Notes under the pieces: generated by a model
The model's database searches: none
The model's input: only the letters and a program-made list of their open reading frames with translations
What the model was told of the DNA's origin: nothing
Part shown: positions 17,406-21,086 of the stretch, piece by piece
Layout: each line of letters opens with the position of its first letter
Numbering within the stretch: position 1 is the first letter of the stretch
Assembly: GCA_016868475.1 (NCBI GenBank)
Contig: VGGU01000012.1
Coordinates: 1-46,596 of the forward strand
Origin: Bacteroidota bacterium
GTDB taxonomy: Bacteria > Bacteroidota > Bacteroidia > Chitinophagales > Chitinophagaceae
Direction of reading: 5' to 3'
Length of the DNA stretch: 46,596 nt
Program-made: the position numbers and the translations under genes

Positions 17406-17480
17406 GGGAGCTTAGCTCAGCTGGTTTAGAGCATCTGCCTTACAAGCAGAGGGTCGGCGGTTCGATCCCGTCAGCTCCCA
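17406..17480 (+). tRNA. tRNA-Val (anticodon UAC)
   Basis: A 75-nt cloverleaf. The acceptor stem GGGAGCT pairs with AGCTCCC, and the anticodon loop CTTACAA gives anticodon TAC (UAC) with A37. The TTCGATCC T-loop is present. The 3' CCA is not encoded. A37 in this isoacceptor is the known methylation site of TrmN6, which is encoded at 32907-33644. Confidence 0.96.
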
Positions 17481-17491
17481 CAGTGAAGATC

Positions 17492-17521
17492 AAGGGGTTA
17501 TATAGTTAACCCCTTTTTTTA
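17492..17521 (+). terminator. intrinsic terminator after tRNA-Val(UAC)
   Basis: A perfect 9-bp stem (AAGGGGTTA with TAACCCCTT) closes a 6-nt loop at 17501-17506 and is followed by an uninterrupted T run. It begins 12 nt after the tRNA. The T-run runs directly into the start region of the SGNH gene (ATG 17529). Confidence 0.85.
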
Positions 17522-17528
17522 TTTGCTT

Positions 17529-18608
17529 ATGTCAGCCTGGCAAAAAAAAATAGCTTTCCCCCTCCTGATTATAGTACTAAGTACGGCCATGAGTTTGTTT
17601 TTAGGAGAACTCCTAATTAGAGCCTTGTACAAGGATAACATTGTTTTATTTCCACGCTATTTCACCGACCGGTGGTATGGAAAGTTTCACTTAAGAAGAA
17701 TGAGGCCTAATATGGAATTTACACATCGAAGTGTAGATGGGGTCTATCACTTTCAGACAAATAATCAGGGCTTCAGAAATAATTCGCCTATCTCTTATTC
17801 TAAAAAACCCGGAGAGATACGGGTGCTTGTATTAGGAGATTCGCACACTTTTGGATATGAAGTGAATCAGTTGGAAACTTATGCAGCTGTGGCAGAACAA
17901 CGGCTCAGGGATCAAGGCATAAACGCAACAGTTATAAATGCAGGCCTGTCGGGAACAGGAACGGGCGAACAATTAGTTTTTTTAGAACAGGAAGGGTATA
18001 AGTATCAGCCTGATTATATTGTACTTGGATTTTTTGAGAATGATTTTGATGATAATCAAAAAGCGGCATTCTTTAAAGTATCTAATGACACTTTGCAATT
18101 AGTTAAACAGGAACATTTGCCTGGGGTAAAAATTCAAAATTTTATCTACCAGTTTAAATTGTTTCATTGGCTTGGCGAGCATTCCTATCTCTATAATTTT
18201 ACTTTTAACACCATTTGGGATTTTTTTAAAACCCTTTCCTTAAAAAAGAGTCATCGCACTGAGGCCGAACAGGTGAATACGCATTCCGGACAAATTAGTG
18301 AGGCAGACCAAGAGCTGGAAAAACTATTATTGAATAGATTGTATCAGCAGACAAAGCCATATGCCAAGTTGATTATCCTGGATATTCCAACTTACCAGGG
18401 GCATTCTTCTGTTCCTTCAATGATGGAAAAATATTTTTCGGCTTCTGCTGATACATTTTTTCATTATCCACTTCACGAACTAGTTTTCAAACGCGCAGGC
18501 AATACGCACGTTCCGCACGGGCAGCAACACATCTCAGCCAGCACTCACCGTATTTTTGGAGAACAGATCGCGGCGTATATTGCAGGAACGCTAGCGAAGC
18601 AACCATGA
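17529..18608 (+). CDS. SGNH/GDSL hydrolase-family protein, membrane-anchored
   Basis: About 359 aa with one N-terminal transmembrane segment (about 8-31). The SGNH blocks visible are LVLGDSHTFGYEV (putative nucleophile S105), NAGLSGTGTGEQL and the Asn-containing FFENDFDD. A C-terminal His segment, HGQQHISA, is also present. Such enzymes are esterases or acyltransferases/deacetylases on glycans or lipids. ATG 17529 is preferred to the TTG at 17523, which falls in the terminator T-tract region. It overlaps the carbamoyltransferase gene by 4 nt (ATGA), so the two are translationally coupled. It is the first gene of the four-gene carbamoylation operon. Confidence 0.82.
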   Translation: MSAWQKKIAFPLLIIVLSTAMSLFLGELLIRALYKDNIVLFPRYFTDRWYGKFHLRRMRPNMEFTHRSVDGVYHFQTNNQGFRNNSPISYSKKPGEIRVLVLGDSHTFGYEVNQLETYAAVAEQRLRDQGINATVINAGLSGTGTGEQLVFLEQEGYKYQPDYIVLGFFENDFDDNQKAAFFKVSNDTLQLVKQEHLPGVKIQNFIYQFKLFHWLGEHSYLYNFTFNTIWDFFKTLSLKKSHRTEAEQVNTHSGQISEADQELEKLLLNRLYQQTKPYAKLIILDIPTYQGHSSVPSMMEKYFSASADTFFHYPLHELVFKRAGNTHVPHGQQHISASTHRIFGEQIAAYIAGTLAKQP

Positions 18609-20470
18609 AAAAAATACTGGGAATTTCAGCCTTTTACCATGATTCGGCTGCTGCATTGGTTGTGGATGGAAAAATAATAGCTGCAGCACAGGAGGAGCGG
18701 TTTACTCGAATTAAACATTCATCCCAGTTTCCTTTGCAGTCAATTTGTTATTGTCTCGAGGAAGGTGGCGTTACTATTGATGAGTTGGATGCGGTAGTGT
18801 TTTACGATAAGCCCTTGCTCAAATTTGAACGGTTACTTCAAACTTACTATGCCTTTGCTCCAAAAGGGTTGCTTTCTTTTTTGAAAGCAATCCCTGTATG
18901 GCTGGATGAAAAACTGTTCATGAAAAAGAAAATCTACGATGGACTTAGTCAAGTGGGGACTTATCAGAAAAAAAAACTTAGACTTCTTTTCACCCCACAT
19001 CATTTGTCCCATGCGGCTAGTGCTTATTATCCCTCACCTTACCAAAAAGCTGCAGTATTGACCATAGATGGAGTAGGCGAGTGGTGTACTGCATCCATTG
19101 GTATAGGAGAGGGGTCTTCTCTTTCTTTGATCCGATCGATGCACTTTCCACATTCAGTGGGATTACTCTATAGTGCATTTACTTATTACTTGGGTTTTAC
19201 CGTCAACTCTGGCGAATATAAATTAATGGGGCTGGCGCCTTATGGTAATCCACAGTCCGCGGAAACTGTTCAGTTCAAGGAATTGATTGAAAATGAACTG
19301 ATTCATATTTATCCTGACGGGTCCATTTGGTTGAATCAATATTACTTTCAATATGCCACTGGCCTTCGTATGGTTCATAAAAGGCGATGGGAAAAATTAT
19401 TTAGAATAAAACGAAGAGAGCCAGAGGCCGAACTTTTACCTGCCTATTGTAATCTGGCGCTGGCCATACAGCAAGTAACGGAAGAAATTGTATTGAAAAT
19501 GGCAGCAGAAGCCAAGCGGTTAACCGGTGCTTCATTTTGTTGTTTGGCTGGTGGAGTTGCGCTTAACTGTGTTGCCAATGGCAAATTGCAACGTGCAGGT
19601 ATTTTTGATGATATTTTTATCCAGCCTGCAGCAGGTGATGCTGGTGGAGCCCTGGGCGCAGCGTTGACTATTTACTATCAGTATTTTGCTCAGCAAAGAA
19701 TTATTGGTGATGAGTCCGATCAACAAGAGGGCAGTTACTTAGGCCCTTTTTATAGTGATAAAGAGGTGGTGTTGGCGGCTAAGCGAGCGAAAGGAGTATA
19801 TGAACACTATGTATCAGATCAAGCCTTATATGACCAGGTATCGGGGCTGCTTGCCAAAGGGAAAGTGGTGGGTTGGTTTCAGGGACGTATGGAATTTGGG
19901 CCTCGGGCATTGGGCAATAGGAGTATTCTGGGAGATCCAAGAGATCCGGATATGCAAAAAAAATTGAACTTAAAGATCAAGCACCGGGAAGGGTTTCGTC
20001 CATTTGCCCCGGCAGTATTAGCTGAAGATGCCAATCATTTCTTTGAGTTAGAGGGAGAGTCCCCTTACATGCTAATTGTAGCCTCTCTTCGTGAGGCACA
20101 TCGAAAATCATTGCCCGCCGATTTTCAGCAATTATCTCTTTGGGAAAGATTGTATTTCCCAAGAAGTGAGCTACAAGCAATTACCCATCTGGACTTTTCT
20201 GCAAGAGTGCAAACGGTTCATGCTTCAACTAACCCTAAATTTTATCACCTGTTACAGTCATTTAAGTCAAAAACAGGTGTAGGAGTTTTGGTAAATACTA
20301 GTTTTAATGTAAGAGGAGAGCCAATAGTTTGTACTCCAGCGGATGCTTATCGCTGTTTTATGAGCACGGACATGGACGCTTTGGTGCTAAATAATTTTTT
20401 ATTTATCAAAGAAGAACAGCCTGATTTTGCTAATAAAGAAAAATGGATGATTAATTTTGAAAAAGATTAA
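18605..20470 (+). CDS. O-carbamoyltransferase, NodU/CmcH/TobZ family
   Basis: A 621-aa enzyme with a Kae1-like N-terminal domain (GISAFYHDSAAALV, the metal-binding HHLSH at 132-136, and D155 in TIDGVGEW). The C-terminal domain is YrdC/carbamoylphosphate-type, with FGPRALGNRSILGDPRDP. The family transfers a carbamoyl group from carbamoyl phosphate, via carbamoyl-AMP, to a hydroxyl of a sugar or natural product. The acceptor here is unknown. Downstream are a DUF5989 and an SxtJ-like protein, the same company kept by SxtI of the saxitoxin cluster. Confidence 0.92.
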   Translation: MKKILGISAFYHDSAAALVVDGKIIAAAQEERFTRIKHSSQFPLQSICYCLEEGGVTIDELDAVVFYDKPLLKFERLLQTYYAFAPKGLLSFLKAIPVWLDEKLFMKKKIYDGLSQVGTYQKKKLRLLFTPHHLSHAASAYYPSPYQKAAVLTIDGVGEWCTASIGIGEGSSLSLIRSMHFPHSVGLLYSAFTYYLGFTVNSGEYKLMGLAPYGNPQSAETVQFKELIENELIHIYPDGSIWLNQYYFQYATGLRMVHKRRWEKLFRIKRREPEAELLPAYCNLALAIQQVTEEIVLKMAAEAKRLTGASFCCLAGGVALNCVANGKLQRAGIFDDIFIQPAAGDAGGALGAALTIYYQYFAQQRIIGDESDQQEGSYLGPFYSDKEVVLAAKRAKGVYEHYVSDQALYDQVSGLLAKGKVVGWFQGRMEFGPRALGNRSILGDPRDPDMQKKLNLKIKHREGFRPFAPAVLAEDANHFFELEGESPYMLIVASLREAHRKSLPADFQQLSLWERLYFPRSELQAITHLDFSARVQTVHASTNPKFYHLLQSFKSKTGVGVLVNTSFNVRGEPIVCTPADAYRCFMSTDMDALVLNNFLFIKEEQPDFANKEKWMINFEKD

Positions 20471-20479
20471 ACTAAGAGT

Positions 20480-20629
20480 ATGGAATTGTTAAAAGATCTA
20501 TGGCAATTTATGCGCGAACGAAAGAAATTTTGGTTGATCCCCCTCATTTTGGTGCTTTTATTGTTAGGCTTTCTAATTGTAATCGGCGGGAGCAGTGCAT
20601 TAGCTCCATTTGTTTATACACTTTTTTAA
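20480..20629 (+). CDS. DUF5989-like small membrane protein (49 aa)
   Basis: The ATG at 20480 opens a 49-codon frame ending in TAA at 20627-20629. The protein starts MELLKDLWQFMRERKKFWL, continues with a single hydrophobic helix (about 19-36), and ends SSALAPFVYTLF. I recognise this pattern as DUF5989, a family found beside carbamoyltransferases and similar to SxtK of saxitoxin clusters. It lies 9 nt after the carbamoyltransferase and 1 nt before the next gene, so it is surely cotranscribed. The biochemical role is unknown. Confidence 0.85.
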   Translation: MELLKDLWQFMRERKKFWLIPLILVLLLLGFLIVIGGSSALAPFVYTLF

Positions 20630-20630
20630 G

Positions 20631-21005
20631 ATGACTAGTCAACGCAATTCGCGACAACAAGTACAGACCATAATGGTGCTTCTCTTGGCATTACTTATTG
20701 GGTGGAAAGCAACCTCAAGCTTGACTTATTGCTATGCTGCTATCACGCTCGTTATACTAGTGTTAATCAGTGCAAGGACCATGAGTACTATTGATATTAT
20801 TTGGATGAAACTAACTTGGGTGCTTAGCTTGATTATTCCAAGAATAATACTGTCGTTGTTGTTTTATTTTTTTCTAACTCCGTTGGGTTTGCTCTCTAGA
20901 ATTTTTGGAAACAAGGATCTCCTTCAACTAAAAAAACCGTCCGGCACCCTGTTTCAAATAGAGGAGCCCTTATCTGGACCAAGAAGCTTTGAAAAAATGT
21001 GGTAA
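20631..21005 (+). CDS. SxtJ-like membrane protein
   Basis: About 124 aa from ATG 20631, 1 nt after the DUF5989 stop. Hydrophobic segments include MVLLLALLIGWKA, YAAITLVILVLISA and a long third region, RIILSLLFYFFLTPLGLLS. Size, topology and position match the SxtJ family that accompanies NodU-type carbamoyltransferases. The upstream TTG at 20610 lies within the DUF5989 gene and is rejected as start. The function is unknown; a membrane partner that presents or transports the acceptor substrate is a speculation. Confidence 0.78.
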   Translation: MTSQRNSRQQVQTIMVLLLALLIGWKATSSLTYCYAAITLVILVLISARTMSTIDIIWMKLTWVLSLIIPRIILSLLFYFFLTPLGLLSRIFGNKDLLQLKKPSGTLFQIEEPLSGPRSFEKMW

Positions 21006-21011
21006 GGGTAG

Positions 21012-21086
21012 TGGAACGTACTGGACTCGAACCAGTGACCCCTACTCTGTCAAAGTAGTGCTCTAAACCAACTGAGCTAACGTTCC
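21012..21086 (-). tRNA. tRNA-Val (anticodon GAC)
   Basis: A 75-nt cloverleaf on the minus strand. The acceptor GGAACGT pairs with ACGTTCC, and the anticodon stem CTACT/AGTAG encloses the loop TTGACAG, giving anticodon GAC (valine). The 3' CCA is not encoded. The anticodon GAC should not be confused with GTC of tRNA-Asp. Confidence 0.93.

What the first reader, a model, noticed from the sequence alone, without database searches (positions are those of the whole stretch)
17529..21005. Four-gene operon with the same gene content as saxitoxin sxtI-J-K-L, in a Bacteroidota core region
Seen: SGNH hydrolase, NodU/TobZ-type carbamoyltransferase, a 49-aa DUF5989 protein and an SxtJ-like membrane protein are packed with overlaps or gaps of 4 nt overlap, 9 nt and 1 nt, between a tRNA-Val with terminator and a tRNA-Val on the other strand. 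Known (from memory): sxtI encodes a carbamoyltransferase, sxtJ and sxtK are small unknowns found beside carbamoyltransferases, and sxtL is a GDSL lipase. Inference: this is a conserved carbamoylation module, probably acting at the membrane on a glycan or lipid, that toxin clusters borrowed. The acceptor and the role of the two small membrane proteins appear undescribed.
Basis: partly seen in the sequence, partly recalled or inferred. Interest (0 to 1): 0.72.

Follow-up and report, generated by a model that had tools for sequence, protein, structure and literature searches.

The report
Membrane-tethered carbamoyl-transfer gene trio
An enzyme that puts carbamoyl groups on other molecules and two tiny membrane proteins of unknown role occur together in many bacteria, even when their genes lie apart, so they probably work as one membrane-bound machine from which saxitoxin clusters appear to have taken a copy.

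Summary
In detail: SGNH hydrolase (L), carbamoyltransferase (CT), 49-aa DUF5989 protein (K) and SxtJ-like protein (J) lie at the stated places, spaced -4, +9 and +1 nt, between two tRNA-Val genes. The order is L-CT-K-J, not the sxt order CT-J-K-L, and the window's J scores just under Pfam's SxtJ cut-off. The conserved unit is CT+J+K; SGNH is an add-on (19 of 80 named loci within 700 bp). Of 247 phylum genomes J is in 87, each with K and strong CT; in 17 of these no two of the three genes were found as neighbours. Of the genomes with only weaker CTs, 0 of 14 and 0 of 37 in two phylum samples have K over cut-off or J; two relatives outside the samples break this. Two genomes encode CT and J as one protein. 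Best reading: J and K tether CT to the inner membrane to carbamoylate a membrane-borne glycan or lipid. Tethering is well supported, the acceptor is inferred. Eight of 13 cyanobacterial loci have CT-J-K-L order, which fits borrowing by toxin clusters; SxtI was not compared. The operon is accessory in its genus.

The parts
17406..17481 (+). tRNA-Val (tac), left border; followed by terminator-like stem 17492-17515
17529..18608 (+). SGNH/GDSL hydrolase with one N-terminal hydrophobic stretch (12-30); Ser105, Asn171 and His334 present, the usual Asp of Asp-x-x-His is Gly331; accessory member
18605..20470 (+). class III O-carbamoyltransferase (CT) with the iron ligands and general base of GdmN (H132, H136, D155, D345; H12) and a segment 66-103 kept in CTs that travel with J and K
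20480..20629 (+). DUF5989 protein (K), 49 aa, one hydrophobic stretch (17-35) after a positively charged N-terminus
20631..21005 (+). SxtJ-like membrane protein (J), 124 aa, hydrophobic helices and a tail of low model confidence
21011..21086 (-). tRNA-Val (gac), right border, facing the left tRNA

Best explanation
The conserved unit is a three-subunit, membrane-tethered O-carbamoyltransferase. CT activates carbamoyl phosphate with ATP to carbamoyl-AMP and moves the carbamoyl group to a hydroxyl (known chemistry of class III CTs; active-site residues shown here). J and K are integral inner-membrane subunits that hold CT at the cytoplasmic face of the membrane; by the positive-inside rule K has its charged N-terminus in the cytoplasm. 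Tethering brings CT to an acceptor that is itself in the membrane, most likely a lipid-linked sugar or glycolipid on its way to the cell surface. The SGNH enzyme, present in this operon and enriched near the trio, probably sits in the same membrane and removes or exchanges ester-type groups on the same product. Shown: gene content, near-complete co-occurrence, natural CT-J fusion, active-site residues, a CT segment that differs from other CTs. Inferred: physical complex, membrane face, acceptor, SGNH role. Rough odds: CT-J-K act as one complex 0.8; acceptor membrane-borne 0.6; acceptor a surface glycan or lipid 0.45.
For: (1) Phylum sample of 247 genomes: K over cut-off in 88, J in 87, strong CT (E<1e-80) in 89; each of the 87 J genomes has K and strong CT. 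In 17 of the 87 no two of the three genes were found as neighbours in the stretches taken (about 7 kb each way), in 13 only CT and J adjoin. (2) Pseudomonadota sample of 200: strong CT 49, K over cut-off 47, J 47, the three together in 44 genomes; K over cut-off and J in 0 of 37 genomes with only weaker CTs. (3) Two natural CT-J fusions, 753 and 742 aa, 73% identical to each other, each with a K gene directly downstream. (4) Gene order varies (CT-J-K 29, J-K-CT 23, CT-K-J 20, others 8 of 80 loci) while CT, J and K are all in the stretch in 77 of 80. (5) H132, H136, D155, D345 in 139 of 139 and H12 in 138 of 139 CTs of this class (near-duplicates not removed); segment 66-103, aligned to GdmN helix 1 of the acceptor pocket (PMC9633730 passages), has mean major-residue fraction 0.80 (overall 0.68) and is missing or different in 8 other CTs. 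(6) Carbamate kinase and ornithine carbamoyltransferase families flank CT-J in four related genomes. (7) SGNH hits 4.3-fold denser near the trio (21 of 44 hits).
Against: No experiment and no model of the complex. Topology of J is not settled (model pTM 0.58; several hydrophobic stretches). Exceptions: G211 and G227 have strong CT without recognisable J or K, though a ~190-aa membrane protein follows CT and looks weakly J/K-like; G440 has CT without J and K; G412 lacks K; G475 and G443 lack J (G443's K near a contig end); G471 lacks CT; G451 has a J fragment at a contig end; G047 has only a K fragment with a stop; among relatives outside the samples G292 (CT 8.9e-75) has J but no K, and G284 (weak CT, 80% complete) has K. 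Of the named loci L242 has K alone, L187 has K with a CT of the other kind and no J, L168 lacks CT. Co-occurrence was not corrected for phylogeny (26 family codes carry the trio). Segment 66-103 is not the best conserved part of CT (180-214 reaches 0.92). No neighbour names an acceptor: of 112 neighbours outside Bacteroidota GDSL in 9, glycosyltransferase-2 in 6, but also response regulators in 4 and PAS and radical-SAM in 3 each, with no outside control. Saxitoxin and suomilide are small molecules, so acceptors need not be membrane-bound.
Confidence: 0.6

Rival explanations
1. J and K are not subunits of the enzyme but export or flip the carbamoylated product, or regulate CT (a 2020 review lists sxtJ and sxtK as 'Regulatory').
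For: Both are small membrane proteins; the 'Regulatory' label was seen in PMC7073992 (passages); weak transporter-like matches exist: ECF_trnsprt in 2 of 37 J proteins (best 0.0011), BioY in 1, CysZ for K at 15.7 of 140 bits.
Against: CT and J are fused in one polypeptide in two species with K beside them; the transporter and regulator matches of the window proteins lie far below their cut-offs.
Confidence: 0.2
2. The operon is part of a small-molecule (natural-product) pathway, as sxtI-L is, and carbamoylates a soluble metabolite.
For: sxtI-J-K-L in saxitoxin clusters (PMC2679770 passages) and sxtJ,K,L-like genes in the suomilide cluster (PMC10157211 passages), which also encodes a carbamoyltransferase (PMC8609519 passages).
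Against: Here the four neighbours scanned are ValS, ClpS, a radical-SAM protein and an acyltransferase; across the 80 named loci the largest neighbour families after CT and J were in 19, 10 and 8 loci, and the first of these is SGNH, so no common pathway shows; the trio occurs in Pelagibacteraceae and Nitrospira among others.
Confidence: 0.15
3. CT acts on nucleic acid (tRNA or DNA), suggested by its Kae1-like fold and its tRNA-Val neighbours.
For: Phage 5-hydroxymethylcytosine carbamoyltransferase of the same Pfam families (PMC8670742 passages); weak TsaD/Kae1 similarity; valyl-tRNA synthetase in 5 of 75 and SpoU methylase in 2 of 112 neighbours.
Against: Membrane partners; the tRNA borders are also present in congeners without the operon, so they mark the site rather than the function. 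Only the first 25 of 161 and of 76 neighbour families were shown, and loci outside the genus were not scanned for tRNAs.
Confidence: 0.03

Closest known systems
sxtI-sxtJ-sxtK-sxtL of cyanobacterial saxitoxin clusters (sizes, order and proposed roles in passages of PMC2679770)
   Same: CT, SxtJ-family protein, very small protein of about the size of sxtK (165 bp) and GDSL/SGNH protein in one block; the authors already propose that SxtI acts with SxtJ and SxtK.
   Different: Order here L-CT-K-J; window CT falls outside the cyanobacterial group of the tree; the four neighbours scanned are not toxin genes. SxtI-L sequences were not fetched, so DUF5989 = SxtK is inferred from size, position and association.
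Class III O-carbamoyltransferases TobZ, GdmN, NovN, NodU
   Same: Kae1-like plus YrdC-like domains; iron ligands and general base of GdmN.
   Different: The named ones modify small metabolites or Nod factors (NodU recalled); window CT is far below NCBI's NodU cut-off (143 of 1000 bits) and belongs to the J/K-associated class with its own 66-103 segment.
WapO/PSPTO_4992, putative LPS-core heptose carbamoyltransferase of Pseudomonas (PMC8005017 passages)
   Same: Precedent for a carbamoyltransferase whose acceptor is a membrane-borne surface glycan.
   Different: Not compared by sequence here; whether J or K exist beside it was not tested.
5-hydroxymethylcytosine carbamoyltransferase of phages (PMC8670742 passages)
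   Same: Same Pfam families.
   Different: Purified as a single protein, acts on 5hmC in nucleotides, DNA and RNA.

Membership tests
Class III O-carbamoyltransferase | Carbam_trans_N and Carbam_trans_C domains over Pfam cut-offs | tested here: met
   307.4 and 245.1 bits, cut-offs 24 and 27; solved relatives GdmN, NovN (decarbamoylnovobiocin carbamoyltransferase), TobZ
Class III O-carbamoyltransferase | iron ligands H133, H137, D156, D333 and general base H27 of GdmN | tested here: met
   P0002 H132, H136, D155, D345, H12 by the alignment; GdmN numbering from PMC9633730 passages; kept in the class
NodU (NF041651) | NCBIfam score over 1000 bits | tested here: not met
   143.3 bits
DUF5989 (PF19451) | score over 27 bits | tested here: met
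   90 bits, 1-49 of 49
SxtJ (PF19588) | score over 24.4 bits | tested here: inconclusive
   window protein 21.8 bits; 36 of 37 aligned J proteins match at E<=0.01; own profile finds it at 1.7e-31, but it was one of the profile's 37 rows
SGNH/GDSL hydrolase | catalytic Ser, Asn and Asp-x-x-His | tested here: inconclusive
   Ser105, Asn171, His334 present, Asp position is Gly331; Pfam 0.1 bit over cut-off; motif recalled
Saxitoxin biosynthesis cluster | adjacent sxt pathway genes | tested here: not met
   the four neighbours scanned are ValS, ClpS, UPF0004/radical-SAM, acyltransferase; the rest of window and genome was not searched for sxt genes
J/K-associated carbamoyltransferase class (defined here) | J and K in the same genome and segment FYDKP..KFERLLETY..AMPVW | tested here: met
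   window CT has the segment as FYDKPLLKFERLLQTY..AIPVW; J and K in the genome
Membrane protein complex | physical association of CT, J and K | not testable with these tools
   only the gene fusion speaks to it

The most novel reading that the evidence does not exclude
CT-J-K is an undescribed, widely distributed inner-membrane carbamoylation complex with one conserved membrane-borne acceptor (the acceptor-pocket segment of CT is kept across more than ten phyla); DUF5989 and SxtJ are its membrane subunits, and saxitoxin and suomilide clusters each took a copy to decorate their own products.
Probability: 0.4. Interest if true: 0.8.

Novelty: new variant of a known kind. Interest (0 to 1): 0.6.

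Why it matters
In the review passages seen, SxtJ and SxtK are listed as not functionally characterised or 'Regulatory', and no paper in the searched library contains the term DUF5989. The three-way co-occurrence and the CT-J fusion turn two unknown families into probable subunits of one enzyme, give a concrete and safe system (non-toxigenic Bacteroidota) to test it in, and point to a carbamoyl modification of a membrane component in many environmental bacteria.

Tried and rejected
SGNH as an obligatory fourth subunit: rejected, 19 of 80 loci, dissimilar sequences. Recent exchange of the window operon with cyanobacteria: not supported; window CT lies in a 25-row set of Bacteroidota, Balneolota, one Elusimicrobium and unlabelled rows (SH-aLRT 95), cyanobacterial CTs in their own set (95) (quick tree). 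But within that set its nearest group (7 rows, 89) holds the Elusimicrobium and two unnamed bacteria, so exchange with other lineages is not excluded; 34 forks are open and the outgroup branches are long. J-K fusion in G211/G227: kept as weak only (J 8-9 bits; K-like 9.6 bits in one, nothing in the other; Pfam found neither family). ValS beside CT in one family and near the window operon: taken as coincidence, not tested. GreA beside CT in five loci and a ~420-aa neighbour family: seen in a few related genomes, not pursued. A CT-profile match at 6e-6 lies 1.6 kb from J in G030 (L305); taken for a TsaD-like gene, not tested. Repeats that would mark an integration event: no direct repeats of 16 nt or more; of three inverted pairs one is the two tRNAs. 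Structure comparison of the SGNH and J models never ran, so no fold evidence is used. A 491-aa frame holding a J match (L320) had no Pfam match.

Rows dropped before counts: K matches under cut-off (G140; G408 and G434, G434 being a weak-CT genome); CTs under 520 aa; CTs under 480 aa (named loci) or 450 aa (relatives). Near-duplicates were not removed; some named loci are the same contigs as unnamed ones (L163 and L067, L220 and L151, for example). The 80 named loci are the best 80 of at least 549 hits found through K, so they say nothing about CTs without K. The strong/weak CT border (1e-80) was set after seeing the table; one genome over it (G345) carries a CT of the other kind. Profile A1 was built from J found near CT or K, but J in the split genomes was found by whole-genome search. 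One search's Fisher test and one search's binomial test treat genomes or hits as independent.
Full report
What is there. Four genes on the + strand at 17529-21005 read SGNH hydrolase, carbamoyltransferase (CT), 49-aa DUF5989 protein (K) and SxtJ-like protein (J), with a 4-nt overlap and gaps of 9 and 1 nt, between tRNA-Val(tac) and a facing tRNA-Val(gac). A terminator-like stem (17492-17515) leaves 13 nt before the SGNH start; it is conserved in two congeners, so the operon seems to depend on read-through or on a promoter not recognised here. Pfam confirms CT and K strongly and SGNH by 0.1 bit; J is 2.6 bits under the SxtJ cut-off, but 36 of the 37 aligned J proteins, the window's included, match that family at E<=0.01.

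Where it sits. ValS, ClpS, a UPF0004/radical-SAM protein and an acyltransferase flank it. Of 39 genomes of the genus sample 37 have the radical-SAM gene at E<1e-160 (G254 and G256 show only paralogue-like matches), but strong CT is in 5 of 35 own or same-genus genomes. Thirty loci around that gene were scanned for tRNAs. Both tRNA-Val genes were seen in 8: facing each other in 5 (99 bp apart in L249, 155 bp in L250, about 480-560 bp in L252, L254, L255) and in the same direction in 3 (L259, L264, L271). In the two operon-bearing congeners where both borders are held the operon lies between them (L150, L152). The operon is therefore accessory DNA at a fixed place; gain or loss was not decided.

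The conserved unit. In 247 genomes of the phylum, K is over cut-off in 88, CT matches at E<=1e-30 in 103, of which 89 are strong, E<1e-80, and J matches in 87. J genomes are the K genomes less G047, whose K is a fragment with a stop on a short contig. 87 of 89 strong-CT genomes have K; 0 of 14 weak-CT genomes do. The trio spans 26 family codes. By place: CT and J within about 7 kb of K in 56 genomes, the window's included; CT near K but J apart in 1 (G196); CT with J but K apart in 13; no two found as neighbours in 17 (in one of these, G125, J lies about 6 kb from K on the other strand) (stretches cut by contig ends included). Inheritance as one gene cluster does not by itself explain co-occurrence of genes that lie apart. 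No correction for phylogeny was made. Among nearer relatives, the 10 strong-CT genomes have K; of the 6 other CT-bearing genomes tested (G269, G255, G265, G276, G284, G292), G284 has K and G292 has J but no K.

A second phylum. In 200 Pseudomonadota genomes (centre G306) strong CT is in 49, K over cut-off in 47, J in 47, the three together in 44; of 37 weak-CT genomes none has K over cut-off or J, and one (G434) has a K match below cut-off. Exceptions looked at: G345's CT is of the other kind (152 bits in my profile against 811 to 935 for those of the class there); G440 has CT without J or K and a changed 66-103 segment; G412 has CT and J but no K; G471 K and J on separate short contigs, no CT; G443 and G475 K and CT without J; G451 a J fragment at a contig end.

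Many phyla. Of 80 named loci found through K (best 80 of at least 549), 77 have CT, J and K within the fetched stretch; orders CT-J-K 29, J-K-CT 23, CT-K-J 20, others 8. The three exceptions are L168 (no CT), L187 (a CT of the other kind, no J) and L242 (K alone). Phyla include Bacteroidota, Balneolota, Pseudomonadota with Pelagibacteraceae, Nitrospirota, Cyanobacteriota, Acidobacteriota, Myxococcota, Planctomycetota, Omnitrophota, Elusimicrobiota. Eight of 13 cyanobacterial loci (L188, L198, L214, L227, L229, L231, L233, L236) and one Pararhizobium locus (L226) read CT-J-K-L, the order of sxtI-J-K-L. In those eight J is 135-137 aa from the nearer start; K is 53 aa in the three cyanobacterial loci where an ATG start was found (L215, L216, L218), against 405 and 165 bp for sxtJ and sxtK (PMC2679770 passages).

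Fusion. In L317 and L318 (two genomes, 73% identical) CT and J are one frame of 753 and 742 aa, with J at 644-740 (58.8 bits) and 648-729 (49.3 bits), and a K gene directly downstream. Pfam sees both CT domains in each, SxtJ just under cut-off in one (23.7 bits) and not in the other. Both genomes also have an unfused set on another contig. In the two phylum exceptions G211 and G227 a ~190-aa membrane protein follows CT with weak J-like and, in one, K-like similarity, and ends in YTLY where K ends in Y-x-L-F; suggestive only.

The enzyme. GdmN's iron ligands and general base (PMC9633730 passages) align with H132, H136, D155, D345 and H12 of the window CT, kept in 139, 139, 139, 139 and 138 of 139 CTs of this class. 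Segment 66-103 (FYDKP..KFERLLETY..AP.G..SF..AMPVW) has mean major-residue fraction 0.80 against 0.68 overall and is missing or different in 8 other CTs, one of which (L162, second copy) is partly alike; other active-site parts are at least as well kept. It aligns with GdmN helix 1 (E85-E98), part of the acceptor pocket. Inference: a shared acceptor, or a shared docking site for J and K.

Carbamoyl phosphate. In four related genomes (L278, L297, L298, L299) CT-J lies between a carbamate kinase and an ornithine carbamoyltransferase. For L278 both were identified (TIGR00746, 390.8 bits, cut-off 358.25; TIGR00658, 426.3 bits, cut-off 280.85); for the others by size and place and by the tally of four amino-acid-kinase and four OTC proteins among 75.

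Acceptor. Outside Bacteroidota, of 112 neighbours GDSL matched in 9, glycosyltransferase family 2 in 6, response regulator in 4, PAS, radical-SAM and AlgX-like in 3 each, polysaccharide synthesis in 2 (first 25 of 161 families shown); in split loci of the phylum valyl-tRNA synthetase and GreA in 5, sugar-nucleotide epimerase families in 3 of 75. SGNH density near the trio is 4.3 times that further off in the same loci (21 of 44 hits). WapO is a published putative case of a carbamoyltransferase acting on LPS core heptose (PMC8005017 passages). This leans towards surface glycans but is thin.

Known before. Mihali et al. [quoted passage not shown] later reviews call them not functionally characterised (PMC2885083 passages) or 'Regulatory' (PMC7073992 passages); sxtJ,K,L-like genes were reported in suomilide clusters (PMC10157211 passages). 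Searches for DUF5989, SxtJ with carbamoyltransferase, 'SxtJ family' or SxtK and SxtJ/SxtI/conserved hypothetical listed no title on the trio as a general bacterial module; apart from listings only the named passages were read, and subscription journals are mostly not held.

Noticed in passing
window 17482-17529: A conserved terminator-like stem after tRNA-Val(tac) ends 13 nt before the SGNH start in window, and likewise in L150 and L152; expression may rely on read-through from the tRNA.
   Followed up: partly
L317:1705-3963 and L318:1694-3919: Natural single-frame CT-J fusions with a K gene next to them; both genomes also hold a second, unfused set.
   Followed up: yes
L278, L297, L298, L299: CT-J between carbamate kinase and ornithine carbamoyltransferase families, with a 440-aa protein (weak CobW match in L278) beside the kinase.
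   Followed up: partly
L287-L290: CT next to valyl-tRNA synthetase and, where scanned, chorismate synthase in one family of the phylum, while valS is also near the window operon.
   Followed up: no
L303:8353-8910, L304:8696-9283: Membrane protein of about 190 aa after CT in the two K-less genomes, possibly a diverged J-K fusion.
   Followed up: partly
L149 (G047): K fragment with a stop codon in a genome without a CT or J match in the searches: looks like a remnant after loss of the trio.
   Followed up: no
L210, L212, L240: Uncultured Pelagibacteraceae genomes carry J, K and CT although this group is known for small genomes (recalled).
   Followed up: no
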